From a virus: 44,209 nucleotides of DNA. The stretch is taken from IMG/VR virus record IMGVR_UViG_3300018059_000019, positions 1 to 44,209 of that record, one strand, 5' to 3'. The notes beneath the pieces are model-generated. The model was not told where the DNA came from, did no database searches, and worked only from the letters and a program-made list of their open reading frames with translations. The first letter of the stretch is position 1. Every line of letters starts with the position of its first letter. Below, one piece after another: positions 1,033-43,356 of this stretch. Made by a program: the position numbers and the translations under genes.

Positions 1033-1317
1033 TTAGTTAATAAGGGCATTGACACTAGTAGCGCCAGCACCGCCCGCCGTTACAGCGCGAACGTGGCTAG
1101 CACGAAATTCCACATTGATGGCGGTTTTGCTAGTTATACTGACGCCAGTCACGCTGAACCACTGAATACCGTCAGGACTGATTTCAAGGGTAGTGGTGGA
1201 GCCATCAAACGTGCCCCAGACGAACAGCGTATAGAGATGACTAAGTTCACGGTTACCCCACTGCCTGATGGGTATATCCGCACCAGTTGCATTACCGCTA
1301 TTCGTTAGTAAGCGCAC
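1033..1317 (-). CDS. Small beta-rich virion-type protein
   Basis: About 94 residues if translation starts at the GTG at 1317, which has GGAG six bases upstream. The open frame extends further upstream, inside the small terminase gene, but those codons are probably not used. The chosen start overlaps the terminase stop at 1298. The sequence is beta-rich with an ISPDGIQWFSV motif of the kind seen in phage tail or neck accessory proteins that bind sugars or stabilise fibres. It ends in a small-residue stretch. The family is not recognised with certainty. Confidence 0.55.
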   Translation of the reverse strand: MRLLTNSGNATGADIPIRQWGNRELSHLYTLFVWGTFDGSTTTLEISPDGIQWFSVTGVSITSKTAINVEFRASHVRAVTAGGAGATSVNALIN

Positions 1318-1888
1318 GTTTGTCTCCAAAGTTAATCTGTATATTTTCCCCGATAATGTTACCCCTCGCCAACATGCGAGCAATTACATCTTCGGCACTC
1401 TCATTCGCTTTGTCTTTCGGCAGCATGGTTTCACGCAACTTAGCGTAGCGATCAACAGCCCGGAGTTGCGTGCTCATCGGTTGGTCTTTATCCAGTGCAC
1501 GACGGACAACATCAACTGCCTTTCCACCCAGCGCTTGTATTTCATCCTCACGGTGGCCATATACCTTCCGGAGGAGGGCAACTGCCAAAGGGTCGTTCAG
1601 GACGCGGCTGACTGTCGCCACACTAACGCTTTGTTCCATCGCTATTTGTTCAAGCGATAGGCCGTGTAGGTGCGCTCCGATGATTTTCATATGCCGATTG
1701 GTGAGACGCGATAGCTTGAGGGCACCATTCTCTCGACGTTTACCAATAGCCTTTTCTACTAAATAACGCGGGAGCATGCGTCCATTAGCGTCAGTTAGCT
1801 TAGGCAAGTCGTTGGGGCGACGCCCTCGCACGTTGGGCATAAAGGATTCTATCATATCCAAAGCTGCATTCGCCTTATCACTATTCAT
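1298..1888 (-). CDS. terS: Terminase small subunit
   Basis: 196 residues. A helix-turn-helix lies at about residues 68-95 (GLSLEQIAMEQSVSVATVSRVLND), followed by a helical region with a regularly spaced basic pattern, the usual layout of DNA-recognition subunits of phage terminases. TerS binds the packaging site and feeds DNA to the large subunit. Here TerL lies at 40.6-42.2 kb, which is downstream in the same operon only if the window is circular. The ATG at 1888 overlaps the stop of the preceding 55-residue gene (ATGA), implying translational coupling. It could be another HTH DNA-binding protein, but position and length favour TerS. Confidence 0.7.
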   Translation of the reverse strand: MNSDKANAALDMIESFMPNVRGRRPNDLPKLTDANGRMLPRYLVEKAIGKRRENGALKLSRLTNRHMKIIGAHLHGLSLEQIAMEQSVSVATVSRVLNDPLAVALLRKVYGHREDEIQALGGKAVDVVRRALDKDQPMSTQLRAVDRYAKLRETMLPKDKANESAEDVIARMLARGNIIGENIQINFGDKRALTNE

Positions 1889-17339: not shown

Positions 17340-17568
17340 AGATCTTGTACAGTCCTTCACGGATATGTCCTTCGACGATCAGCTTGAACGCATCCGTAAA
17401 GTACGTAACGCCCGTACCATCGAACGACCAGTTGCCGCCGTCAAACGTGTGAAGAAGGAAGCTAAGGCGAGGGACAAAAATGTAGATAAGACCAGAACGG
17501 CTATACTCAAACTCACACCAGAGATGCGTGCACTCCTAATTGCTAAACTTCAAGGAAAAACAACATGA
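17323..17568 (+). CDS. Small basic helical protein
   Basis: 81 residues from a GTG inside the previous gene. Basic linker in the middle (AAVKRVKKEAKARDKNVDK) and a final helix (LTPEMRALLIAKLQGK) recalling the end modules of the proteins at 4086 and 12454. The stop overlaps the ParB/methyltransferase start. Possible DNA-associated protein. Confidence 0.5.
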   Translation: MTKRIEDLVQSFTDMSFDDQLERIRKVRNARTIERPVAAVKRVKKEAKARDKNVDKTRTAILKLTPEMRALLIAKLQGKTT

Positions 17569-18932
17569 CTGTTATTATAAACCAAGGCGTTATGCCACCG
17601 ACAAGTGTGGTAAAGGGAACACGTTTTCGTACTAACGAAGATCTTGATGATGAATTCCTCGATAGCATACGGGAAAAGGGTATTATTCAACCAATAACGA
17701 TTGACCAAAACAAAACGCTTGTTGCCGGCGGTAGACGATTAGCTGCCGCCCTTAAGTTGGAACTAACGGAGATACCCTACATCCAACGGCAGGTTGACAC
17801 CGAACTGGACTTGCGCGAATGCGAACTAATAGAAAACCTCTACCGTAAAGACCTCACGTGGATTGATAACAACAACCTGGTGAACAAAATCCATCAGCTA
17901 ATGGAGCAAAAGCATGGCAACAACTGGTCTCAGCGAAAGACTGCCGAAATGCTCAATAAGAGTGTGGGGGGAATCAACCGACACTTGGCTCTCAACAAAG
18001 CAATCAGTCATTTTCCTGCGCTGGCTCAGTGCAAAACAGAAGATGAAGCCGTCAAGCTGTTTCGTAAAGTGTCCGAGCGTGCTATTGTCAAAGATCTTGT
18101 CAAGCAACAAGCCGCACGCGTCGCTACACCGGAGACAGCTACAAGCGCTGAGACTGCACCCCTCCCAGTTGGCGTACGCCTCGCTAGTGGAGCTAGAGAT
18201 CACTATAGAATCGGTGATGCCATTAAGGGAATGCAAGAGCTTGCTGATAAAGGAATAGTTATACCCTGCCAGCTAGTTGAGATTGATCCGCCATATGGTA
18301 TAGACCTGACTAGTCAGAAGAAAGGGGAGGATAACGAAGGCTTGGGAGAGTACAACGAGATCGAGTCTAAAGACTACGACAAGTTTCTATTTAACACTAT
18401 TAGCCTAGTCGCAAAGGTTACTCCACCAAACTGTCGTTTTATCATCTGGTTCGGTATTGAGTGGTATCAGTATCTTCGTGACATCCTATTAACACTGGAC
18501 ATTAAGCATGACCTCATTCCCGGTATATGGAACAAAGGAACTGGACAAACTGCTGCACCAGACCTCTATCTTGGACGCGCATATGAGACATTTATTGTCG
18601 CCTGGAAAGGAGATCCCATCCCCATCGTTAAACGTGGGCGAAGTAACGTTTTTAACTATCCCCCTGAGCCTTATGGAAACAAGTATCATCCAACCCAACG
18701 TCCTGTTGCTCTCATGCAAGAACTTCTCCATACCTACGCCTGGCCAGGATCAGTCATCCTGGTTCCGTTCCTTGGTAGCGGAGCGACGCTGCGTACTGCT
18801 TATCAATGCGGTATGAGCGGTTTTGGTTGGGACTTGAGTGAGGTATACAAGGAGGGCTTTATTGCTCAAATAGAGAAGGACATACAAGACGGTTCCCTTA
18901 ACGAAGTGCTTGAAGCAAAGTGGGGCTTTTGA
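17565..18932 (+). CDS. ParB-like domain fused to a beta-class DNA methyltransferase
   Basis: 455 residues. The N-terminal ParB/Srx-type domain (about 1-95) has GGRRLAAA and ENLYRKDL, the places of the CTP-binding GERRxRA and ENxxRxxL motifs of ParB. A ParB-type helix-turn-helix follows (about 118-148: WSQRKTAEMLNKSVGGINRHL). After a linker comes an amino-methyltransferase: catalytic motif IV DPPYGI at about 243, HPTQRP at about 368, and the AdoMet-binding motif FLGSGAT at about 397. The order (DPPY before FxGxG) marks a beta-class N6-adenine or N4-cytosine enzyme. It could protect phage DNA from restriction or mark it. An exact parS site lies at 4223-4238. Confidence 0.85.
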   Translation: MTVIINQGVMPPTSVVKGTRFRTNEDLDDEFLDSIREKGIIQPITIDQNKTLVAGGRRLAAALKLELTEIPYIQRQVDTELDLRECELIENLYRKDLTWIDNNNLVNKIHQLMEQKHGNNWSQRKTAEMLNKSVGGINRHLALNKAISHFPALAQCKTEDEAVKLFRKVSERAIVKDLVKQQAARVATPETATSAETAPLPVGVRLASGARDHYRIGDAIKGMQELADKGIVIPCQLVEIDPPYGIDLTSQKKGEDNEGLGEYNEIESKDYDKFLFNTISLVAKVTPPNCRFIIWFGIEWYQYLRDILLTLDIKHDLIPGIWNKGTGQTAAPDLYLGRAYETFIVAWKGDPIPIVKRGRSNVFNYPPEPYGNKYHPTQRPVALMQELLHTYAWPGSVILVPFLGSGATLRTAYQCGMSGFGWDLSEVYKEGFIAQIEKDIQDGSLNEVLEAKWGF

Positions 18933-19191: not shown

Positions 19192-19502
19192 ATGCTCGTT
19201 ATATCTACGTATCTGGTCCTTACACCAAGGGAGATGTTGCCATACTAGCCGCTGAAAGACTAAGAATCTTTGGCTTCATCCCTTACGTTCCCTACCTATC
19301 ACATTTTTGGCATCTAGTATTTCCACACGAACACGAATATTGGATGAGGCTAGACTTACAATGGGTAAAGATGTGTGAGGCATTGCTTAGATTACCGGGT
19401 GAGAGTACAGGTGCTGATCGTGAAGTGAAAGAGGCTAAATCTCTTGGATTAAAGGTATATCATTCCATAGATGTACTAATAGATGAAGAGCGTGGGTCAT
19501 GA
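19188..19502 (+). CDS. Nucleoside deoxyribosyltransferase-like (DUF4406/DUF1937-type) protein
   Basis: 104 residues. YIYVSGPYTKGD at the start, a GFIPYVPYLSHFWH centre, DLQWVKMCEALLRLPGESTGAD and EVKEAKSLGLKVY are the strand/loop signatures of small Rossmann-like proteins related to nucleoside 2-deoxyribosyltransferases. In phages these are thought to act on nucleotides or their derivatives. It directly precedes the polymerase gene (ATGA overlap), which fits nucleotide metabolism. The substrate cannot be told from sequence. Confidence 0.65.
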   Translation: MNARYIYVSGPYTKGDVAILAAERLRIFGFIPYVPYLSHFWHLVFPHEHEYWMRLDLQWVKMCEALLRLPGESTGADREVKEAKSLGLKVYHSIDVLIDEERGS

Positions 19503-20488
19503 CCTTCATCCCCATCAGCGCTAATGCCCTTGCCCAAAGTGAAGAGCATGCCGACATCGTGCTGGTCGGTGATCACGTTGACGTAGAGGCTCTGCGTGTA
19601 GGTAAACAAGTTAGTAGTGCCGAAGAGTCTATCATAGAACAAGCCCTTCATATGAGTGGCCTGACTAAGCATGACATAAAGCATATCATTCTATTTCCAG
19701 GTAGGCATAACACAACAGGCTTGTGGATCGACAATAGCAAGGCATACAAACGATACTTTACTCCTGAAGGTAAAGTTGCCATCCAGACGCTGAAGGATAA
19801 ACTAGCGTTGATAAAGCCCAAGGTCGTTGTGACTCTAGGCGCTATCACTACACAAGCTTTGCTTGAGCGTACAGACTATACGGACATACGAGGATACCCT
19901 TTCCAGCTAGACAATTACCTAGTTATACCATCACTCAAGCCAAGGGACATGATTTGGTCTAATTACATCTGGCGCTTTTACTTGAGTAACGACTTGCGAC
20001 GTGCGAAGGAATTTGCCATTGGTAACTTAACAGTCGACGAACCTACCCTATCCATTCCGGCTACTTTCGACGAAGCATGTGCTATGCTCCGCTCTGTTGC
20101 ACGCATGAACCGTGTGAGCATAGACATCGAGGTGAGTAACTACGAAGTGTCGTGCGTGGGCTTCTCAGCTGACCACAAAAGTGGCTTTAGCATACCGACG
20201 GATGAACGCTGGTCAGTTGAGGAAGAGGCCGTCCTGTGGGGAATGATGGCAGCGGTGTTGGGTAACCCCAAGATTGTTAAAATCGGTCAGAACTTCATAT
20301 TCGACACTTACTTTCTAGCCTACAAGATGGGCATCATCACTCGTGGATATATAGAAGATACAATGGTTGCGTCTAGTATTGCATACCCGGACTTCCTCAA
20401 AGGTCTTGGTTTTCTGGGTAGTGTTCACACAACAATGACATACTGGAAAGATCAAGTAGATTTCAAAAATATCAAGGAGGAGGCATGA
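19499..20488 (+). CDS. DNA polymerase N-terminal fragment: UDG-like domain plus part of the 3'-5' exonuclease
   Basis: 329 residues. About 20-170 resembles a uracil-DNA glycosylase fold (IVLVGDHVD, VTLGAITTQALL, VIPSLKPRDM), but the usual GEAPG and HPS catalytic motifs are altered, so it may be structural. About 195-329 is a DnaQ-like exonuclease: Exo I VSIDIEVSN, Exo II IGQNFIFDT, then EDTMVAS. Exo III is missing here and appears at the start of the gene at 20778. The break is filled by an HNH gene. A UDG-type domain at the front of a family A polymerase is known from SPO1-like phages. The two fragments must associate to make a complete exonuclease site. Confidence 0.8.
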   Translation: MTFIPISANALAQSEEHADIVLVGDHVDVEALRVGKQVSSAEESIIEQALHMSGLTKHDIKHIILFPGRHNTTGLWIDNSKAYKRYFTPEGKVAIQTLKDKLALIKPKVVVTLGAITTQALLERTDYTDIRGYPFQLDNYLVIPSLKPRDMIWSNYIWRFYLSNDLRRAKEFAIGNLTVDEPTLSIPATFDEACAMLRSVARMNRVSIDIEVSNYEVSCVGFSADHKSGFSIPTDERWSVEEEAVLWGMMAAVLGNPKIVKIGQNFIFDTYFLAYKMGIITRGYIEDTMVASSIAYPDFLKGLGFLGSVHTTMTYWKDQVDFKNIKEEA

Positions 20489-20781
20489 GTACATATGAGT
20501 TAACCAAGGATGCTTGGAGAAGATATCCTTGTATCATATTTCAAGGAGCTATTCGTGCCGATGGATATGGTATCTGTAGTTATAATGAGTATGCACATCG
20601 TAGAGCATTTTTCAAGTATTATGGCAAATATCCAGTTAATGAATGTTGCCATCATTGCGATGTGCGTTCATGTATTCATCCAATGCATCTATTCGACGGT
20701 ACGCAGGGTGAGAATATAAGAGATAGTGTACGAAAAGGTAGGCATTCAAGCCTATTCTTACATAAAAAGGAGGAAACGTGA
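20485..20781 (+). CDS. HNH homing-type endonuclease inserted in the polymerase
   Basis: 98 residues. CCHHCDVRSC, then HPMHLFDGTQGENIRD is the beta-beta-alpha metal finger of phage HNH_3-type endonucleases, followed by a basic KGRH tail. AGGAGG lies ahead of its ATG, which overlaps the stop of the polymerase N-terminal fragment; its stop overlaps the GTG of the C-terminal fragment. Such genes spread by cutting uninvaded alleles. The surrounding DNA is too short for a group I intron, so it is a free-standing insertion that split its host gene. Confidence 0.85.
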   Translation: MSTYELTKDAWRRYPCIIFQGAIRADGYGICSYNEYAHRRAFFKYYGKYPVNECCHHCDVRSCIHPMHLFDGTQGENIRDSVRKGRHSSLFLHKKEET

Positions 20782-22304
20782 CCTACCTAACCAATGATAA
20801 GATGTTACGGTACAACGCTAAAGATGCCGTTGCGACTTTGGTCATCGCTAACAAGGTTATGCCTGAACTCAGTCCTGACTATCGTGACACTTACGATCAT
20901 ACTATGAGTATGATACGTCCATTAACTTATATGATGTTAAGGGGCGTTCGTGTAGATCAAGCCGAACTAGCAAAAATGAAGGTGAAGGTCGACGGCCTGC
21001 TCACCCAATACCAGGTTAAACTCAATCAACTATGTGGACGCCCCCTCAATGCTAACAGCTCCAAGGATTGTCAAAAGTACTTCTATGACGAGAAAGGCGT
21101 TGCTCCTTACAAGAAATACAATAAGAAAACGCAAACTTCTGCTGTCACCCTTGACGATAAAGCTCTCCAACGCCTTTCTCGCACGACTGCTCAGCGCAAA
21201 GGTTTCGAGGAGGCAAAAATCATTCAGCGCATTCGTCAACTTAGGAAACTCAAGGGAACCTATTTGGACATTGTTTTCGATAAAGACGACAGAATCAGGT
21301 GTAGCTATAACCCTAGGGGGACGCGCTTCGGGCGCATATCAAGCAGCAAGACGATCTTCCAAACGGGAATGAACTTACAAAACCTTCCTCCTGCATTCAT
21401 GCACTTTCTAGTAGCCGACGAAGAACGGCTCATGATAAGCATGGACAAAAAACAAGCGGAATGGGTAGTCATGGCGTATGTGACTGGTGACGCGAATATG
21501 ATAAATGCTGTTGAGACAGGCGTCGATGTTCACGTCTACACAGCTAGTGAAATGTTCAAGGTTCCGCCTGACATAGTGCGTGCTGAGGCAAAGATACTTG
21601 GGCAAGAAAGTGCTCCTGATGAAATCGAGATGCAACGAAAGAAGATGGACTTCATTCAACCCTACATGGGCCAGTGGCTCCCTAGGTCCATGACAATGAG
21701 GCAGTGTGGCAAAAAGAGTAACCACGGACTAAACTATGATGAACAAGCAAGAATGTTTTCGCTCATTAACGAAATCACAGAAAAAGAAGCTCAAACGATT
21801 ATTGACTTCTATCATCGCATCTATCCCGGAATTCAACGATATTACGGAACTACTCGTGAAAAACTCTCACGAGACAGAACACTTGAAAATCTTTTCGGTA
21901 GGAAGTACAGGTTCCTTGGAAAGTGGGGAGACGATCTATTTAAGTCTGCTTATTCGTACAACCCGCAAAGTAGTGTTGGAGAGTTAGTTAATAGAGCGAT
22001 GGACCAGATTTATGACGACACCAGTCCTGAGACAAGCGATCTTGAGATACTAATGCAAGTGCATGACAGTATTGACTTTCAGGATCAATACGCTGACTTG
22101 GATAAGTTGATAGCTTGTTTGCGCAAAGTGCAGGGTTACATGGACATCCCGATGACGGCGGGTGGAAGAACTTTTACCATCGGCACAGATCTTAAGATCG
22201 GTTTCAACCTGGGTAAGATGCAAGAGATTAACTTACGCAGCTCTGATAGCGAACTAAAAGAAATGATCGGGAGCTACTTGAATGAGCAGAAGACGCCTAA
22301 GTGA
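20778..22304 (+). CDS. DNA polymerase family A, C-terminal fragment
   Basis: 508 residues from a GTG with AAGGAGG eight bases upstream. It begins with the missing Exo III motif (RYNAKDAV, about residues 11-18). Polymerase motifs follow: motif A MDKKQAEW with the catalytic Asp (about 222), motif B RQCGKKSNHGLNY (about 309-321), and motif C QVHDSIDF with the second catalytic Asp (about 431). Template/primer contacts such as GRISSS are also visible. It replicates phage DNA with the N-terminal fragment supplying the rest of the proofreading domain. Confidence 0.9.
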   Translation: MTYLTNDKMLRYNAKDAVATLVIANKVMPELSPDYRDTYDHTMSMIRPLTYMMLRGVRVDQAELAKMKVKVDGLLTQYQVKLNQLCGRPLNANSSKDCQKYFYDEKGVAPYKKYNKKTQTSAVTLDDKALQRLSRTTAQRKGFEEAKIIQRIRQLRKLKGTYLDIVFDKDDRIRCSYNPRGTRFGRISSSKTIFQTGMNLQNLPPAFMHFLVADEERLMISMDKKQAEWVVMAYVTGDANMINAVETGVDVHVYTASEMFKVPPDIVRAEAKILGQESAPDEIEMQRKKMDFIQPYMGQWLPRSMTMRQCGKKSNHGLNYDEQARMFSLINEITEKEAQTIIDFYHRIYPGIQRYYGTTREKLSRDRTLENLFGRKYRFLGKWGDDLFKSAYSYNPQSSVGELVNRAMDQIYDDTSPETSDLEILMQVHDSIDFQDQYADLDKLIACLRKVQGYMDIPMTAGGRTFTIGTDLKIGFNLGKMQEINLRSSDSELKEMIGSYLNEQKTPK

Positions 22305-35473: not shown

Positions 35474-36448
35474 TTAAACCGTGTCGATGCCGCGCAGTAC
35501 ACCCTGCACGCGTCGACGGTTAGTGGTCATGGAGCATGCCGTGATGATCTGTGCAGCCCGATCGTTGATCTGATCAGGGATGGCTTTCCACTCCGTCATA
35601 TCAAAGTAAACGGCTGGGTCATACACAAAGTTCAGGAAACGCGTATTAAGGAAATACATGTTCCCCGTAACGCATGACGGACTCCACACAAGGGGAGTGC
35701 TCTTGAATACCAAATTCTCGAAGCCCAGGTCCGTCAGCTTCTGATTGTGAATCTGATATTTGTCAAGCACGTTATCTTCATACTGTTCATGCGCGAACTG
35801 CGTAGTTACGATGATGTCCGGACGATCCTGCATGCGATTGTTCTGACAGTTGTTCATCATAGTTCGCATACGAGCAGTACCAGCGGTTGCGAAACTGACA
35901 CCAGTCATGGTGTCAGTCTTATTGCGCCACCATGTCTCAGCACCCTGATCAATCTGACCCACTTGAGTTGTCGTCGTTGGGTCATCTTTCACCAGGAGCT
36001 GCAAACCATCGAATGCGCCACCCTCACTGCCGGCAGCAGCAAATAGCGTTGTTTCCAACACCGTAATAAGGGACTCCTGCGCATTACCCATCTTCGCCTT
36101 GGCAAGGTCCAGGATTCGGGTTTTACCCCTATTCTTCTGGTCGTCCACGCCAAATCGTACGATAGGTGCCTGAAGGTAGCGCCAATCATAGATAGCGTTA
36201 GTCAGGAACTCACGGTCGTTAAGCGGTACAGTCCCACCACGACCAATGAACCCAACGCCATCATTCTCAGCGTATTCCAGTGTTTCAAGGATATGTCTTC
36301 CGCCAGATACCGGACGCAATTTACCTTTCTCTTTCAGCCAGTACCAGAATGGAGTGCTATTAAAGACGTTGTCAATAATAGCATCTCGCATGTGCTGCCA
36401 AGTGCTAGCGTAAATATTGTCCAGTACCTCAGTTAGTGAACCAGGCAT
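35474..36448 (-). CDS. Major capsid protein
   Basis: 324 residues, probably HK97-fold. N-terminal helix (SLTEVLDNIYASTWQHMRDAI); a central region with FIGRGGTVPLNDREFLTNAIYDW and PDIIVTTQFAHEQYEDNV (P-domain type); a C-terminal strand segment. It follows the scaffold and precedes the decoration gene in transcription order. GGAG precedes the ATG. Codons are GC-rich at third positions, as expected for the most abundant product. Confidence 0.85.
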   Translation of the reverse strand: MPGSLTEVLDNIYASTWQHMRDAIIDNVFNSTPFWYWLKEKGKLRPVSGGRHILETLEYAENDGVGFIGRGGTVPLNDREFLTNAIYDWRYLQAPIVRFGVDDQKNRGKTRILDLAKAKMGNAQESLITVLETTLFAAAGSEGGAFDGLQLLVKDDPTTTTQVGQIDQGAETWWRNKTDTMTGVSFATAGTARMRTMMNNCQNNRMQDRPDIIVTTQFAHEQYEDNVLDKYQIHNQKLTDLGFENLVFKSTPLVWSPSCVTGNMYFLNTRFLNFVYDPAVYFDMTEWKAIPDQINDRAAQIITACSMTTNRRRVQGVLRGIDTV

Positions 36449-36484: not shown

Positions 36485-37174
36485 TCAGTCAACTGCGTCA
36501 TCTCCCATACGAGCAAGCGCCGGGAAGCTAGCCGTTGCTTCTTCCCAACTTTTCTCTAGAGCCTCATCAACCGTCATCTTTTTAGCTTCCTTGCCATCAC
36601 CACTACCGCTAGCGTCTCCATTGGTAGTTGGTCGAAATCCTCCAAATAGCTGTAATCTAGCATCATCCTTTGTCGTCTTATCAGCATACTTCGTATCCAC
36701 TTCCTTGACTTTGTCTGGATTCTGCGCCTTCGCAAGTACGTACAGATCCTTGATGCTGAGGGTAGGATGTCCTTTCGCCAGGGCACCCATTTCACCTTCC
36801 CAGTCTTTAAAGTCCTTGGTGTCTCCAGCAAACTTCGTTACATCATCACTGATGAAACGGTTGTTCACCTTTTGTAGCGCACCATCCATCTTGGTGCCCA
36901 TCTCCGTCAGTTTGGTCTCAAGCAAGCTACCTACCTTACCGAGGATGAGGTCAGCAAGATCCTTTTTGCTCATCTCCTCCAGGTCTTCAGGTTCCTCTTT
37001 GACCTCTTTAACAACCTCCTTTGCTTTAGCTGCCGTCGTTTCCATCAACGTGCGGAGGCCACCGATAGTTTGGCTTTGCTGCTGCACTACGGTGGTGATA
37101 CCCTTAAGTAACTTACCGAGTTCGAGGAATGCTGGGTCTTTCGCAAGTTCATAGGTCAGTGGATCAATCGCCAT
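36485..37174 (-). CDS. Scaffold-type protein
   Basis: About 229 residues from the ATG at 37174 (GGAGAG seven bases upstream); a 9-residue longer frame starts at 37201. Highly charged and helical: QQQSQTIGGLRTLMETTAAK, then KEVVKEVKEEPEDLEEM. Such a protein directly upstream of the major capsid gene is the usual internal scaffold. The C-terminal third (GDGKEAKKMTVDEALEKSWEEA) may bind capsid. Confidence 0.7.
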   Translation of the reverse strand: MAIDPLTYELAKDPAFLELGKLLKGITTVVQQQSQTIGGLRTLMETTAAKAKEVVKEVKEEPEDLEEMSKKDLADLILGKVGSLLETKLTEMGTKMDGALQKVNNRFISDDVTKFAGDTKDFKDWEGEMGALAKGHPTLSIKDLYVLAKAQNPDKVKEVDTKYADKTTKDDARLQLFGGFRPTTNGDASGSGDGKEAKKMTVDEALEKSWEEATASFPALARMGDDAVD

Positions 37175-37427
37175 TTTGCTCTCCATCCGTCTTTGTTTCA
37201 ATCAGTTTGGTTTCTTCGCGTCTTTTGTGAAGTTCCATCGTACCTGCACATCTAACGATCGCTCGCTGTCTATCAACTTCCTTTTCTACCATAGCCGCCA
37301 TGACTTGTTGCTTCCTGGCGTTGATTCCATCCACTCCACTCAGCTTAACAGTGAGTGAACCGTCCGACATGAATTGTACAACTAACGTCTGTAGTACAGT
37401 AACTTTCGTCCCTTCGCTGGTGTTCAA
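37164..37427 (-). CDS. Small helical protein between zinc ribbon and scaffold
   Basis: 87 residues if it starts at the TTG at 37427, which lies in a 15-bp palindrome copy and has AGGAG nine bases upstream. Predicted beta then basic helix (GINARKQQVMAAMVEKEVDRQ). Overlaps the scaffold start by 11 bp. Not recognised. Confidence 0.45.
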   Translation of the reverse strand: MNTSEGTKVTVLQTLVVQFMSDGSLTVKLSGVDGINARKQQVMAAMVEKEVDRQRAIVRCAGTMELHKRREETKLIETKTDGEQNGD

Positions 37428-37442: not shown

Positions 37443-37733
37443 CTATCCTGCATCTTCCAAGTAACGGGACACGTTCCCGTGTTCTTGACACACATCCCTT
37501 AGGTGGACCTTATCCCTTATGTAAAGGGGATCCGGACTAGCGTGTTCCCACTGAGGGTCACCTTTAGGGAAACCTTCACGCGCAAACACACCCCTTACAG
37601 CTGTGAAGATTTGCCTAAACATACCGCCACAACTACATCTAATACCAGGCTTTACAAGCACTTCGTGTTGTGCAAGTGTCGCTTGGACATCATCAACCGC
37701 ACCACACTTATCACACTGCATTTCGTAAATCAC
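37443..37733 (-). CDS. FmdB-like zinc-ribbon protein
   Basis: 96 residues from a GTG overlapping the portal stop (GGAGG upstream). MIYEMQCDKCG (Cys 7, 10) and GIRCSCGGMF (Cys about 33-35) form a zinc ribbon like that of FmdB/putative regulatory family proteins. Its C-terminal part (FPKGDPQWEHASPDPLYIRDK) is polar. Present near portal genes in some phages; role unknown. Confidence 0.65.
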   Translation of the reverse strand: MIYEMQCDKCGAVDDVQATLAQHEVLVKPGIRCSCGGMFRQIFTAVRGVFAREGFPKGDPQWEHASPDPLYIRDKVHLRDVCQEHGNVSRYLEDAG

Positions 37734-39430
37734 GATTGTCCTCCACTAGGTGCTGGTAAACGTCTCTGCGCACCAGCCATTTTCTGATACATCTGCGGTA
37801 ACTGGTCCATACCAATAGGCTGATCAGGTGTCATTCCTGGTCCTTGCATTGGCACCATCATGTCATCAAACGAAACTCCATGCAATTCCCTCAACAAGTA
37901 CTTGGTAAGTTTGGTTGGATCAATAAGCGGATTGTCCTTAAGTATCTGATAGGCAGTCAACGCTTTGGTTTGTCTCACATCCTTTGTCTCAGGTACCGAG
38001 CTGTCAGGATCGACCTTTACTTGATATTGACCACGCTTTAACATGGTGGGACGGAAGGTGACCCACAACTGGATGCCCAACGGTCCAGCTATGTCTATAA
38101 CCTGCTCTTGATTCCAGTGATTGAAGATAATGGGATGAATGTCTGTCGTGGTCTTAACAAGCATATCTGCGATAAGGTCTCTACGCTCATCGACGCGAAT
38201 TTCACTTGCTGCCTTAACAGCGCTAGCTTCAGTTGCAGTTGGGCTATGAGAGCCAGGCTTATACTCACCGAACTCGTTTCGACTGAAACCGAGTGACTCT
38301 CGCACATCTTGCATTACCGCCATTTCGTTTTCAGTCAAATCACTCGGTATGTTATTCCCAGTCAGTATTTTAATAGCACTTTCCGGGTTGCTTTCAGTGA
38401 AAGCAACTGCAGCTACATCACTACTCAACAGCTTGTCTACTTCCTCTTGCTTTATTGCATTCCGTTGCGCAAGTATTTTTAGGACACTCAAGCGCCTATG
38501 GTACATCTTCATCGTCCTTGTTTCATTAATCTCAAGCTGATTCGGTTCTAGTATCTGTGCGTCAGGGACACCCCAAAAGTTCTCATCATCATCATTAAAG
38601 ACGAGTGGATTCGTCACATCTATGCCAAGACGAAAGAACTCATCGTCCTCAAACAACAGGGTTTTGTCATTCATGCTGGGGCTGATGATGAACACCTTTC
38701 CTGTTTTCCTGTCACGTATTTCATACAAATCCGTGCAGTCCACTGGATTACGGAGTTCGAGCTTCTCCCGGGTGTCTAACCTATAAGTGGCTGGCTTAAT
38801 ATCCTTATTATTCCTCAATCTTGGGTCACTTTTAATGTCTTCAACAGTACGCCGAATGATAAAACAATCCCAACGAGCTTCATCTTTGTCTGCCACTCCA
38901 CTTTCAATAACATAGTTACCTGGTGCGTTCCGAAGAAACCATGGCATATTCGGCTGTATGTTAATGTTGTACTCGATGGCTTCCTTACCACGCACCAAAG
39001 GAGCTTGTGTAGTACCAAGCGACTCGGGCGTACTCTGATATTGGGAGCCAAATCCCAGTTTGCCAATAGCCGTGCCGAACATAAAGTTGTCACGTACCAT
39101 CCCTTTGATTTGTTTCTTCAAGCCCATTTTCTGAATCAACTGATTGTCAATACGCTCGAGCATTTGCGCCATCAGCGCATATTCAAGCCCCGCCCTTGCG
39201 CTTTGCACACTCACGCTAGGGTCATGAAAATAGATACGTGGAACCATCGTCCGGAGCATTTTAAAGAACAAGTTGCTTGGCAGTACATCGGGTGACCACA
39301 GCCCCCTGTAGTAATTACGCCAGCGTGCCCACTTCTCCTCGTAGGCACAGCGCTTTCTGTACTCAAGCCCAAGCCTGATTTGCCGTAACCAGTAGGCTAC
39401 GTCAGGTCTTCCCTTATCGTAACCCTGCAT
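37730..39430 (-). CDS. Portal protein
   Basis: 566 residues. Starts with LRQIRLGLEYRKRCAYEEKWARWRNYYRG; then SNLFFKMLRTMVPRIYFHDPSVSV; a central wing; and a C-terminal Pro/Gln/Met-rich tail (MDQLPQMYQKMAGAQ). Location (downstream of terminase, upstream of scaffold and capsid) and the W..YYRG..NLFFKMLRTMVPRIYF pattern fit portal proteins of podo-/siphophages. The ATG shares a base with the stop of the ATP-grasp gene (TAATG). Forms the DNA channel of the head. Confidence 0.85.
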   Translation of the reverse strand: MQGYDKGRPDVAYWLRQIRLGLEYRKRCAYEEKWARWRNYYRGLWSPDVLPSNLFFKMLRTMVPRIYFHDPSVSVQSARAGLEYALMAQMLERIDNQLIQKMGLKKQIKGMVRDNFMFGTAIGKLGFGSQYQSTPESLGTTQAPLVRGKEAIEYNINIQPNMPWFLRNAPGNYVIESGVADKDEARWDCFIIRRTVEDIKSDPRLRNNKDIKPATYRLDTREKLELRNPVDCTDLYEIRDRKTGKVFIISPSMNDKTLLFEDDEFFRLGIDVTNPLVFNDDDENFWGVPDAQILEPNQLEINETRTMKMYHRRLSVLKILAQRNAIKQEEVDKLLSSDVAAVAFTESNPESAIKILTGNNIPSDLTENEMAVMQDVRESLGFSRNEFGEYKPGSHSPTATEASAVKAASEIRVDERRDLIADMLVKTTTDIHPIIFNHWNQEQVIDIAGPLGIQLWVTFRPTMLKRGQYQVKVDPDSSVPETKDVRQTKALTAYQILKDNPLIDPTKLTKYLLRELHGVSFDDMMVPMQGPGMTPDQPIGMDQLPQMYQKMAGAQRRLPAPSGGQS

Positions 39431-40596
39431 TAGATTAACTCCAGGTTCTTTAGTTTATTAAGCCACGGCTTATACACACTACTCATGTTAGTGGCATAGC
39501 TAGGTTCAGGTACCCTAACCACAGTGTTAGTATGGTATGCCCGACCAAAGGATTCATCAGGATCACGGCCGTGGGCGGTCACCGTGTAAATCCAAGGGCC
39601 GGGCATGACGACTATTTCTTCCTCATTCTTCCTAACACTGCCGAAAAACAGGTGTTTGGAGTTACCACTATCTATGCCTATGATAGGAATACCTTCAGGA
39701 TCCTTCAGGTTAGTCCTCACAACAATGGAGCTAATATAGTCACTAGTGTAATCCACCTTATCACATACACCAAAGGCTATCTTGTTGAGGAATTCACCGA
39801 TTGGCTCCTTAAGTCCCTCGAAGTAGGCATAGATAGAGGGAAATTCAATACCAGTGTGTGTGCTAATTATCTGCACCGCCTGCTTGCTTGCGAGAGCACG
39901 CACGGTGAAAGGGCCACGATAGTCCACCTTACGCAAAAACTCACCCCAAGGTTCAATCACTTTCTTCGTCCATTCCCTCTCATACAAGCCAAGCATGAGG
40001 CTGGCACCAAGATCACTCTCCTTATTCGTCTTAAGGATAAATGGCCTTACCCACTTAGTTCCATCGAACCAACCAGTCACAGTCAGTTCTTCACCAAAGC
40101 TAGGTGTTTGTAACAGGATCTTTTTGTTCAATGGAAGCTTGTACATGGCCCAACTAAGCCATTGCTGGTGGTCGCACGTTATGGTCTCTCTATCGTACCG
40201 TACCAACGTACGCGTTGGGTTCCAATCAACCACTTTACCAAACATCTCACTCATATCGTTAATCACCTCGGTGGGTGGCATCACCACACCTAGGCGTTGG
40301 CCAATCGTATATTCACGATAACAGTCCTTGTTCATCAAGTCCGTCATGGGGGAACAACCGATTATGGGCTTATTGAACGTTTTTGCCCATTCATACACTT
40401 TCTGATCATCCACCGCATCGGCCACAATGAACTTGCAATCCTTTATAGCATTGTATACATGACTAGCCTTAGTGAAAAAGCCGTAGGTCTCAGGTAACTT
40501 CACCGTACTGGATACAGCTACGTCGTGACCTTCACTCACTAGGCGACTAGCCAGCCCTATCGATCGTAGGTCTTTAGTGATAACGAGAATTTGCAT
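39430..40596 (-). CDS. PurD-like ATP-grasp protein in the packaging cluster
   Basis: 388 residues. It aligns by eye along its length with phosphoribosylamine-glycine ligase (PurD): Rossmann-like start (MQILVITKDLRSIGLASRL); NKPIIGCSPMTDLMNKD and TIGQRLGVVMPPTEV; FGEELTVTGWFDG; TGIEFPSIYAYFEGLKEPIGEFL; and the C-terminal VTAHGRDPDESFGRAYHT. The glycine-rich ATP loop and the NxRxGDPE metal-binding motif are not preserved (STHTGIEF instead), so purine synthesis is doubtful. It is tightly coupled to TerL and portal (23-bp and 1-bp overlaps), suggesting a role in head assembly, DNA packaging or amide-type modification. Confidence 0.7.
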   Translation of the reverse strand: MQILVITKDLRSIGLASRLVSEGHDVAVSSTVKLPETYGFFTKASHVYNAIKDCKFIVADAVDDQKVYEWAKTFNKPIIGCSPMTDLMNKDCYREYTIGQRLGVVMPPTEVINDMSEMFGKVVDWNPTRTLVRYDRETITCDHQQWLSWAMYKLPLNKKILLQTPSFGEELTVTGWFDGTKWVRPFILKTNKESDLGASLMLGLYEREWTKKVIEPWGEFLRKVDYRGPFTVRALASKQAVQIISTHTGIEFPSIYAYFEGLKEPIGEFLNKIAFGVCDKVDYTSDYISSIVVRTNLKDPEGIPIIGIDSGNSKHLFFGSVRKNEEEIVVMPGPWIYTVTAHGRDPDESFGRAYHTNTVVRVPEPSYATNMSSVYKPWLNKLKNLELI

Positions 40597-42214
40597 TATA
40601 GCTCTCTATGTCCTGATAAGGTATAGGGAAGGAGCCCTTCTCCACACTCGAACGATTGCGTAATTCAGCCAGCACAGTGTCAAGATCGAACAAGTCCTTT
40701 TGACTCTCCATTATTCGCTTCTCTCTATCCTCCCTCTCATAGATGTAGGGACTGGAGCGAGCGCCTTCGACACCTATCGCGAGAGATAATACGCGATCAT
40801 CGAAGCAGCCCTCTGCGGCGACAAGTTTGCCATTATCATCTTCGATAAAAGTATTGAGTTCATCTTTGCATGTGGTGCTGTGGATGACGAATCCTTCGAT
40901 GAACTCCTTTCTAAGGCCGCCAATAATAATAGGTCTTGTGCGTTGAGTAGTTTTATATCCATAACTCAGCAATGTGTCATTCTCCTTATCGTTCTTAAAC
41001 AGGAGGTGTTGCGGATACCCTTCCAACTTGTCATCAGCCTTGGGAAAGCCCTCGATCAGCTTTAGCAAAGTGACGGCACCGTGGTTGTTCGTCTCAACGG
41101 TAACAAAGGCATCGTTATAATGCCTCCCCAACTCTATCACCTTACGCGCCAATACATCAGGACTCGTTGTATCACTGACCCATTCCGCCACCTGTTTCCA
41201 CTTAAACAGATCTATTACTTGTATCACGCTTCTGTTTCGCCTAACGCCACCACCCACGTCCACGCCTATGGCATACCTAGACTGATGGTGTTTATACTCA
41301 TCAACCAGTGCCCACAGGCATTGATCCACTTCCTTCATATGCACCCACTCGTCTGTCTGCACATGCTTGATGATGCTGAAGAAGGAGTAACCAGTGCTCT
41401 GGAAACACTCATCAAAGGTCATTGGGTATTCCGCCTTGAACAGGCGCAAGTCATAGTCGAGTTCATCCAGCTTCTCACGCCTAAAGGCAAGTTGTTCTAG
41501 CGTAACGCCCTGTTCGTATAACTTAGGCTCTTCTAGTTCATCACTTAGTTCACTCAACAATTTAGCCTTTGCGTCTTCATCCAACGGGACAGCATACCCT
41601 GGCTCCTTCAACCAATCAAAGAAATGGATACGATAACGACTTTTACCCTCATACGCTCGAACGCACTGCCTGTGATACCAGTTACCGCTACCATTACCAG
41701 TACTTTCTATCGCTATCTCGCCATCCCTCGGCACAGCTTGGAACAAACCAGCAGTTAGTGCCTTCGGATCTTCCCAGTATGCCACCTCACTGCAGTGTAG
41801 CCGAGTGATCATATCACCACGACCAAACTTACGTGCGCCTGCAGTGCCTATGAAGAAGGTACTGTTAGTCTTGGGGAAGACTATCTCCCCCTTTGACGAG
41901 TTAGATATGACTGCCTTTGGTCCACGTATGTTTTCCAGCATATAGTGGACTCGTCCAAGGGCTCGTTCAGTAGATTCTCTATCATGGCTAATAACGACGG
42001 CCCTTGTATTTCTAATGGATAAACATCCGGCGAGGTATCGCGCAAGGAAGTATGCGCTAATTCCAAGCTGTCGCGCTTTCGGAACAATGTCTCGTCCAGT
42101 AAGTTCATTATCCAACTTGGCTTGGTGATAGTTAAGGGTGAATGGTACATCTTCGCTATCCTTACTAACGATTTTGAACATACTCTCGATGATTAGGCGT
42201 TCCTTGGTTGCCAT
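40574..42214 (-). CDS. terL: Terminase large subunit
   Basis: 546 residues from the ATG at 42214 (GTG at 42217 also possible). ATPase: adenine/arginine motif region YHQAKLDNELTGRDIVPKARQLGIS with a Walker A-like RQLGIS; Walker B-type MITRLHCSEVAYWED; coupling motif IESTGNG. Nuclease domain (RNase H fold): IGVDVGGGVRRNRSVIQV with the first catalytic Asp; VTVETNNHG; and CFDDRVLSLAIG with the last acidic residues. Drives DNA into the prohead and cuts it. TGATG overlap with the upstream gene. Confidence 0.9.
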   Translation of the reverse strand: MATKERLIIESMFKIVSKDSEDVPFTLNYHQAKLDNELTGRDIVPKARQLGISAYFLARYLAGCLSIRNTRAVVISHDRESTERALGRVHYMLENIRGPKAVISNSSKGEIVFPKTNSTFFIGTAGARKFGRGDMITRLHCSEVAYWEDPKALTAGLFQAVPRDGEIAIESTGNGSGNWYHRQCVRAYEGKSRYRIHFFDWLKEPGYAVPLDEDAKAKLLSELSDELEEPKLYEQGVTLEQLAFRREKLDELDYDLRLFKAEYPMTFDECFQSTGYSFFSIIKHVQTDEWVHMKEVDQCLWALVDEYKHHQSRYAIGVDVGGGVRRNRSVIQVIDLFKWKQVAEWVSDTTSPDVLARKVIELGRHYNDAFVTVETNNHGAVTLLKLIEGFPKADDKLEGYPQHLLFKNDKENDTLLSYGYKTTQRTRPIIIGGLRKEFIEGFVIHSTTCKDELNTFIEDDNGKLVAAEGCFDDRVLSLAIGVEGARSSPYIYEREDREKRIMESQKDLFDLDTVLAELRNRSSVEKGSFPIPYQDIESYNANSRYH

Positions 42215-43356
42215 CACACATGCCCTATGTTAACAGGGGTGAAGGCCATTAGCTTAACGAAAGAACGGACCATTGCCTTAATGAAGTTCTCGCTAGTTGC
42301 CACTATACCAGTTGGTGTCAGGTTGACACTACCCTCCGCAATCACTATATCAGCACTTTGTACTGTTATACTAGTATTGCCACCAAACACCAGGGTGATT
42401 GCTTGCCCCTCGGCTACCGCGTCACTAGATATGACAGTATCCAGAAACAGTAAGTTGATAGATTGACCTTCACCCACTATATCTGCATCTACACCAGGCT
42501 GTGTCAGTATGAAAGGAATATCTTGCCCTTCAGCTACTATATCCACACTCGACACGGGAAGTACATATGCTTGGTCGAATAGCAGGGATACGCCAAAACC
42601 CTCAGCAACAGCCTGTCCGCTGGTTATAGGCATGCTAATCGGCATTGTAACCGATTGTCCCTGTCCCACCGCGTCGGCACTATCAACAGCTAGGGACAAG
42701 ACACCGATGGGAAGAGAGATAACTATACCAAAAGCATCACCACTACCGCCACTAGCAGACGTAACACTAGGCGCTAGGGCACCAGTCGCTCCAGCACTAA
42801 CAGCATTTCTGGTAGCAAAACCAAGACTTATAACAGAAGCGCTGACAGAACTACGTTGAGTGTAGTTGGTTGGAGCTGTGAATGTGTATGTTTCGTTCGT
42901 GTAACCTTGGCAGATACCTTCAATTACCAAGATGTCATCCAAAGCAAGTGCGGTTATGCCACTAAGCGATATGGGGGTAGCTCCAGGAAAGGCACTACCT
43001 GAAGGGCCAGTCGTTGCCAAGTAGTTAGTTAATGCAGCAGCTGAGCGTCCCGTAAAGTATATAGCACCAATAGCTAGATCAGCACCACTACCATTTGATA
43101 TGTCATAGCTTCCTGGCTCACTGCCTCCAGCAATTTTATAAGCCCACTTTATAGTACCATTACTTCCATTATTACTAACGTTATCAGCGCCAGTAACACC
43201 AGTTGTAAAACCCTGTCCACTAGGGAAAGTTATCGTATCACTGCCACCACTACTCATACCAACAAGTATAAGTAATGCCCCCGAGGGTACAGCTAACGTA
43301 ACTGTTCCTGCACCATCAGCAGAGTCAAAACTATATGCTGCGCTACCGTATGCCAT
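42214..43356 (-). CDS. Beta-rich virion protein with six VAEGQ repeats
   Basis: 380 residues. About 1-215 is a Gly/Ser-rich beta domain (PSGALLILVGMSSGGSD; GAIYFTGRSAAALTN) as seen in tail or appendage proteins. About 215-345 holds six imperfect 20-24-residue repeats around (S)AD-VAEGQ-I-L-F. The final 30 residues are a basic amphipathic helix (ENFIKAMVRSFVKLMAF). It lies between the beta-helix protein and terL, so a fibre or tail accessory that varies between strains is plausible. Confidence 0.6.
   Translation of the reverse strand: MAYGSAAYSFDSADGAGTVTLAVPSGALLILVGMSSGGSDTITFPSGQGFTTGVTGADNVSNNGSNGTIKWAYKIAGGSEPGSYDISNGSGADLAIGAIYFTGRSAAALTNYLATTGPSGSAFPGATPISLSGITALALDDILVIEGICQGYTNETYTFTAPTNYTQRSSVSASVISLGFATRNAVSAGATGALAPSVTSASGGSGDAFGIVISLPIGVLSLAVDSADAVGQGQSVTMPISMPITSGQAVAEGFGVSLLFDQAYVLPVSSVDIVAEGQDIPFILTQPGVDADIVGEGQSINLLFLDTVISSDAVAEGQAITLVFGGNTSITVQSADIVIAEGSVNLTPTGIVATSENFIKAMVRSFVKLMAFTPVNIGHV

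What the first reader, a model, noticed from the sequence alone, without database searches (positions are those of the whole stretch)
39430..40596. PurD-like ATP-grasp protein wired into the terminase-portal cassette
Seen: a 388-residue protein with the domain order of phosphoribosylamine-glycine ligase lies between terL and portal, overlapping both. Its ATP-loop and the NxRxGDPE metal-binding motif are replaced. Known: ATP-grasp enzymes join carboxylates to amines, and phage-encoded amide-ligase-like genes have been noted near head genes. Inference: it is not a metabolic gene but either ligates something to a virion or packaging protein, or binds a nucleotide as a structural/packaging factor.
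Basis: partly seen in the sequence, partly recalled or inferred. Interest (0 to 1): 0.72.

Follow-up and report, generated by a model that had tools for sequence, protein, structure and literature searches.

The report
PurD-derived pseudoenzyme in phage packaging cassette
Between its DNA-packaging motor gene and its portal gene, this uncultured phage carries a protein that looks like the purine-making enzyme PurD but has lost the enzyme's working parts; most related phages keep a complete, modified version in the same slot, so an old metabolic enzyme appears to have been recruited into virus assembly and then disabled several times.

Summary
The gene is on the minus strand (39430-40596). Single-sequence searches found nothing, but relatives reached through neighbouring genes settle the identity. 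A family profile matches PurD (GAR synthetase) crystal structures over their full length (E 3.9e-31), and a confident AlphaFold2 model of the window protein (pLDDT 93) has PurD structures as its 15 best PDB matches.

I found over 90 distinct relatives, all in uncultured phages. In 109 of 110 loci showing both flanks (some contigs counted twice), the gene lies between terL and portal. Most relatives (73 distinct loci) keep a near-invariant active-site signature that differs from true PurD, suggesting an ATP-dependent ligase with a new substrate. They score far below the curated PurD cut-off, and 20 tested records (window included) lack two purine-pathway marker families.

The window protein belongs to a well-supported clade that lost the A-loop, the substrate lysine/glycine motif and the metal ligands, yet stays full length under purifying selection. 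Loss happened about 7-11 times; another clade eroded or deleted the gene. I read the window protein as a pseudoenzyme kept for a non-catalytic role in head assembly or packaging. That role is inferred, not shown. Substrate of intact relatives unknown.

The parts
39430..40596 (-). PurD-like ATP-grasp pseudoenzyme, 388 aa (P0001)
   Evidence: profile to PurD 3.9e-31; AF2 pLDDT 93.4; PDB ranks 1-15 all PurD
40171..40209 (-). residues 130-142: site of the ATP-binding A-loop; PurD/family K replaced by Arg133, 5-6 residue loop deleted
39997..40044 (-). residues 185-200: site of PurD 'DHK...GPNTGGMG' / family 'HTxExK...TGCxGN' substrate loop, lost here
39838..39921 (-). residues 226-253: ATP-grasp core strands with the metal ligands; family D,N...E,T (PurD Y,G...E,N) replaced by T231,R233...S245,H247
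   Evidence: assignment of the metal positions by analogy with known ATP-grasp enzymes is inference
39433..39756 (-). residues 281-388: C-terminal domain corresponding to GARS_C; part of the first stretch to match PurD (2ip4, E 0.13) with only three sequences
40574..42217 (-). terminase large subunit (terL); overlaps the PurD-like ORF by 23 nt
   Evidence: phrog_2 E 1.6e-25
37730..39430 (-). portal protein; start codon overlaps the PurD-like stop (TAATG)
   Evidence: phrog_12082 E 5.9e-5; 77% and 69% identical to the portals of L003 and L004
35474..36448 (-). major capsid protein, used as anchor to find relatives
   Evidence: phrog_9953 E 3.2e-45
36485..37201 (-). conserved protein between portal and MCP, scaffold by position
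   Evidence: cluster 4, present in 93 loci; scaffold role inferred from position
37443..37733 (-). zinc-ribbon-like small protein following portal
   Evidence: cluster 6 in 75 loci; Pfam Zn_ribbon_8 only at E 0.099

Best explanation
The protein is a catalytically dead member of a phage family descended from PurD (the ATP-grasp ligase GAR synthetase) that sits in the terL-portal slot of a group of uncultured tailed phages. The ancestral phage protein was probably an active ATP-dependent carboxylate-amine ligase with a changed substrate, acting during late gene expression on a head or packaging component or making a small molecule used there. In the window's lineage the catalytic residues were lost while the fold and gene order were kept, and the protein now most likely acts without catalysis, binding a partner in the packaging/portal/procapsid assembly step. 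SHOWN: PurD homology and fold, place, active-site loss, repeated losses, purifying selection. INFERRED: activity of intact relatives, morphogenetic role, partner.
For: Homology and fold. Place: gene between terL and portal in 109 of 110 loci with both flanks, including loci from a scan blind to gene order. Intact relatives: 12 diagnostic sites K,E,E,K,T,G,C,N,D,N,E,T matched at 11-12 of 12 in 73 distinct loci, nearly invariant although overall identity falls to about 40%. Loss in the window: 1 of 12 sites kept. Ten diverse members of the window clade (28-56% identical to the window) all keep a full-length protein of about 390 aa. Constraint: pN 0.30-0.36 against pS 0.73-0.86, dN/dS 0.14 where computable; dN relative to portal 1.7 against 1.04 in intact pairs. 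Contrast: another lost clade eroded the gene to 114-196 aa or deleted it, so its upkeep in the window clade is not automatic. No purine-pathway partners; not PurD by curated score.
Against: No direct evidence of function, virion association or a binding partner. Position between terL and portal could partly reflect a conserved operon without functional contact: in a few phages the gene lies elsewhere in the late module (L135 after MCP; L076, L075, L143 near tail genes). Faster evolution (1.7x) is also what a slowly decaying gene would show. AF2 gives a fold, not a function.
Confidence: 0.6

Rival explanations
1. Active ligase in a new guise: the window protein still catalyses ATP-dependent ligation, with a relocated or unconventional active site, and modifies a virion or packaging protein.
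For: The fold is confidently kept; pseudoenzyme-looking proteins sometimes have novel chemistry (general knowledge); the gene is under purifying selection.
Against: The lysine, A-loop, substrate-loop K and GxNTGxMG, and all metal-site acidic residues are gone together, and no replacement set of invariant polar residues appears: invariant residues of the 10-member window clade are mostly G, P, W, F, L and A, with few polar ones (E22, H24, N75, N89, D114, H315, R352).
Confidence: 0.08
2. Ligand-binding but non-catalytic: the protein keeps a pocket that binds a nucleotide, polyphosphate or other small molecule and acts as a sensor or regulator of packaging.
For: Fold is kept in the model; terL next door is an ATPase, so a nucleotide sensor would make sense.
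Against: The residues that hold ATP and Mg in ATP-grasp proteins are the ones lost; no conserved polar cluster marks a new pocket.
Confidence: 0.12
3. Decaying relic: after loss of activity the gene has no function and is on the way out.
For: Faster evolution than in intact pairs (1.7 vs 1.04); erosion or absence of the gene in another lost clade.
Against: Window clade keeps full length and frame across members only 28-56% identical to the window, with silent sites near saturation and pN 0.30-0.36 in close pairs.
Confidence: 0.14
4. Auxiliary metabolic gene: phage PurD boosting host purine synthesis.
For: True homology to PurD.
Against: Active site gone here and altered in intact relatives; purD equivalog score 82-115 vs 288 cut-off; no AIRS_C or formyltransferase in 20 phage records; late packaging cassette location.
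Confidence: 0.02
5. Small-terminase substitute: the protein replaces TerS.
For: It lies beside terL.
Against: A candidate TerS exists: cluster 9 (window 1298-1888, -) has relatives directly upstream of terL in 9 loci, and one relative (L024) hits a PHROG called terminase small subunit at 2.2e-4. The PurD fold has no TerS precedent that I know of.
Confidence: 0.02

Closest known systems
PurD / GAR synthetase (phosphoribosylamine-glycine ligase; Pfam GARS_N/A/C, TIGR00877)
   Same: Same domain order and fold over the full length; family profile matches PDB PurD at 3.9e-31; intact relatives keep the K, E, K, GxNTGxMG-type, E and R positions.
   Different: Family changes N to T and G to N at the metal-site columns, DHK-type to E-x-K, GDP to GYD; scores far below the purD cut-off; phage late-operon location. 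The window member has lost the active site altogether.
Phage-encoded ATP-grasp / amidoligase clusters (LUZ24-like phages, PMC3890496; R2K peptide ligases of jumbo phages, PMC7824862)
   Same: ATP-grasp or amide-ligase genes carried by phages.
   Different: In UFV-P2/LUZ24-like phages these genes are in the early positive-strand module (PMC3890496), and jumbo-phage members are R2K or RNA-ligase types. In the passages read none is PurD-type or lies between terL and portal. BFVD holds ATP-grasp hits only with TM below 0.5 normalised to the query.
ATP-grasp pseudoenzymes (e.g. TTLL12, PMC3520985)
   Same: ATP-grasp-fold protein without the expected ligase activity.
   Different: Eukaryotic, TTL branch; unrelated context. 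Known here only from title and abstract.

Membership tests
ATP-grasp fold, PurD branch | Full-length structural similarity to PurD | tested here: met
   AF2 model: PDB ranks 1-15 all PurD, TMq up to 0.76
ATP-grasp fold, PurD branch | Sequence homology | tested here: met
   Profile A5 to 2yw2 3.9e-31; relatives over GARS_A and GARS_C gathering scores; P0001 itself hits neither alone
Active ATP-grasp ligase | A-loop with ATP-binding lysine | tested here: not met
   K replaced by R133, loop deleted
Active ATP-grasp ligase | Acidic/amide metal ligands in the core strands | tested here: not met
   T231/R233/S245/H247 in their place
GAR synthetase (PurD equivalog) | TIGR00877 curated cut-off (288 bits) | tested here: not met
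   Relatives 82-115 bits; P0001 no hit
GAR synthetase (PurD equivalog) | Purine-pathway context | tested here: not met
   No AIRS_C or formyltransferase domain in 20 records
GAR synthetase (PurD equivalog) | Ligation of glycine to phosphoribosylamine | not testable with these tools
   Needs an enzyme assay or purD complementation
New phage terL-portal PurD-like family | Gene between terL and portal, same strand | tested here: met
   Window and 109 of 110 flanked loci
New phage terL-portal PurD-like family | Signature KN(T/S)QEEHEKGTGCGNDNETRGYD of the intact majority | tested here: not met
   Window reads R-TQETLN--ESDGATRSHGEFP; placed in the family by homology and synteny as a pseudoenzyme branch
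Virion or packaging protein | Presence in virion/procapsid or binding to TerL/portal | not testable with these tools
   No cultured member found: the only family member seen in named phage records is the metagenomic record ct2os315

The most novel reading that the evidence does not exclude
An undescribed family of phage ATP-grasp ligases, evolved from PurD, performs an ATP-dependent amide or peptide-type ligation as a built-in step of head assembly or packaging in a large group of uncultured phages. In the window's lineage the catalytic step was dispensed with and the protein was kept as a structural or assembly subunit.
Probability: 0.4. Interest if true: 0.82.

Novelty: new variant of a known kind. 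Interest (0 to 1): 0.62.

Why it matters
A purine-biosynthesis enzyme fold fixed between the packaging motor and the portal is unexpected; none of the six paper searches I ran turned up a description. The family offers a natural experiment: near-invariant active sites in most phages, repeated losses, upkeep as a pseudoenzyme in one clade and erosion in another. If intact members ligate something to a head protein, it would be a new covalent step in tailed-phage assembly; if they make a small molecule, a new phage-made assembly cofactor. Either is directly testable by expressing an intact and a dead member side by side.

Tried and rejected
Single-sequence searches (Pfam, PHROGs, PDB phmmer, INPHARED tblastn, viral contigs) found nothing for P0001. 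The first AF2 run, with 3 sequences, failed (pLDDT 38.8) and was not used.

Metabolic-gene reading: tested with purD, AIRS_C and formyltransferase models, rejected.

Co-variation hunt for a substrate: I looked for terL, portal and MCP columns that change with loss of the active site. One MCP arginine (window MCP Q232) stood out at first: R in 38 of 38 intact main-group phages, not R in 6 of 8 lost lineages. It failed the stricter look. On the tree it shows 4 changes on lost and 0 on intact branches, while other MCP columns show 8/0 and 7/0; outgroups without the gene have R; four of five readable basal intact phages have V/I/Q; independent-pairs sign tests do not reach 0.05. I do not count it as evidence. 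It was picked from a scan of all alignable columns of several proteins.

C-terminal residues of virion proteins showed no pattern with active-site state.

TerS substitute: rejected.

Selection caveats: the A6 scan used motif peptides, so it favours intact members; the MCP-anchored scans are not biased that way, but I removed loci already held, so the absence of intact members among those 36 is at least partly an effect of that filter.

Full report
WHAT IS THERE. The window is a 44,209-base virus record. On the minus strand a late operon runs terL (40574-42217), the PurD-like ORF (39430-40596, 388 aa), portal (37730-39430), small zinc-ribbon-like protein, conserved scaffold-position protein, MCP (35474-36448). 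terL and the PurD-like ORF overlap by 23 nt; the PurD-like stop and portal start share a base (TAATG).

IDENTITY. Alone, the protein matches nothing significant in Pfam, PHROGs, PDB, INPHARED or by viral-contig scan. I therefore walked in from its neighbours. Portal- and MCP-anchored scans brought contigs in which an ORF between terL and portal is homologous to it: L003 57%, L010 56%, L004/L005 49% identity, then dozens more by profile. More conserved relatives pass Pfam gathering scores for GARS_A (best 1.7e-13) and GARS_C (best 6.5e-11). A 34-sequence profile headed by the window protein matches PurD of Aquifex (2yw2) over profile positions 2-404 at 3.9e-31; the next ten hits are also PurD. 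An AF2 model built with that alignment has pLDDT 93.4 and pTM 0.90; Foldseek ranks 1-15 in PDB are all PurD, best E 4.1e-22, TMq up to 0.76. In the viral structure library the best match is only 7e-9, with TM 0.47/0.50.

PLACE. A later scan used only the intact members' own motifs and so was blind to gene order. Taking all loci, 110 show both flanks (some are the same contig fetched twice) and in 109 the gene lies between terL and portal on the same strand; in 60 my gene caller sees it as the sole gene there. The exception with both flanks is L135 (after MCP). L075, L143 and the public record ct2os315 (MW202796, L076:42140-43471, unannotated) carry it near tail genes, and L141 next to adaptor genes. 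All are in late structural modules. MAG contigs L073 and L074 have the same terL-gene-portal order.

ACTIVE SITE. At 23 sites the intact majority reads KN(T/S)QEEHEKGTGCGNDNETRGYD with almost no variation, while overall identity falls to about 40%. Cellular PurD from Salmonella and Acinetobacter reads KLVEEITDKGTGGGAYGENRGDP at the same columns. So the family keeps the ATP lysine, a substrate-side lysine, TGxG and a metal-site Glu, but has N to T and G to N at metal-site columns and H/E/C/N residues that PurD lacks. That the G-to-N column corresponds to a metal-ligand position of other ATP-grasp enzymes is my inference from known families. NCBIfam purD gives 82-115 bits against a cut-off of 288. 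Two other purine-pathway families are absent from the window and 19 related records. I infer that intact members are active ligases with a substrate other than PurD's.

THE WINDOW PROTEIN. It reads R-TQETLN--ESDGATRSHGEFP at those sites: lysine to arginine, A-loop deleted, substrate loop gone, metal ligands replaced by T231, R233, S245, H247. A tree of terL+portal+MCP (94 rows) puts it in a well-supported clade with L195, L004, L010, L003, L016, L011, L172, L189, L200, L203, L204; every member whose active-site columns could be read has lost the site. Ten of them, the other nine 28-56% identical to the window, all keep about 390 aa. In close pairs pN is 0.30-0.36 and pS 0.73-0.86, with dN/dS 0.14 where computable (other pairs saturated); dN relative to portal is 1.7, against a median of 1.04 in intact pairs (range up to 2.1). 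So it is constrained, but less than intact copies.

REPEATED LOSS. Unrestricted parsimony needs 10 changes (7 losses, 3 regains). Since regaining a whole active site is implausible, about 11 losses is my count from the tree if loss is irreversible; horizontal transfer is not excluded. Another clade (L047, L064, L158, L167, L169, L170, L171, L174, L181, L187, L188, L190) has short remnants (114-196 aa) or no recognisable gene. The basal group (L132-L135, L139, L140, L142, L144) is intact, so the intact state is probably ancestral.

MECHANISM. For intact members: ATP-dependent carboxylate-amine ligation during late expression, target unknown. For the window: the fold kept for binding, most likely to a packaging or head-assembly partner. 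This rests on place, upkeep and loss of catalysis; no interaction or virion data exist here.

LITERATURE. Six full-text searches returned no paper that the abstracts or passages I read show to describe PurD-type proteins between terL and portal. LUZ24-like phages carry amidoligase and ATP-grasp genes in an early module (PMC3890496). The library omits most subscription papers, including Iyer et al. 2009 on amidoligases, so novelty is provisional.

Noticed in passing
window 1298-1888 (-): HTH-containing protein (cluster 9); relatives lie directly upstream of terL in 9 loci and one (L024) weakly hits a small-terminase PHROG (2.2e-4), so a likely TerS. Its place near the record's start suggests the late operon continues across the ends if the genome is circular.
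   Followed up: partly
window 19499-20488 and 20778-22304 (+): DNA polymerase A appears split into an exonuclease ORF and a polymerase ORF with a 98-aa ORF between them.
   Followed up: no
window 17565-18932 (+): Fusion of a ParB N-terminal domain with an N6/N4 DNA methylase.
   Followed up: no
L076:42140-43471 (MW202796.1, ct2os315): Unannotated member of the PurD-like family at the end of the tail module of a public phage genome whose terL and portal are directly adjacent elsewhere.
   Followed up: partly
L144:10407-11771, L135:2268-5249, L132-L142: In the basal group a second conserved protein of unknown function (cluster 20, about 190-993 aa) lies just upstream of portal, usually right after the PurD-like gene.
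   Followed up: partly
window MCP residue Q232 (35474-36448, -): MCP arginine conserved in all intact main-group phages is often replaced in phages with a dead or missing PurD-like gene; not significant once the tree is taken into account.
   Followed up: yes
L013:729-1917: The PurD-like gene is split into two overlapping frames (86 and 320 aa) while near-identical L012 reads through as one frame: sequencing error or recent frameshift.
   Followed up: no
AGRM01000005, CAKLQF020000002 in the 'phages' collection (also probably OR845008, OR846666): Records filed as phage that hold ordinary cellular purD; the first two have purH beside it, i.e. bacterial contigs. The others are unannotated and judged by similarity only.
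   Followed up: partly
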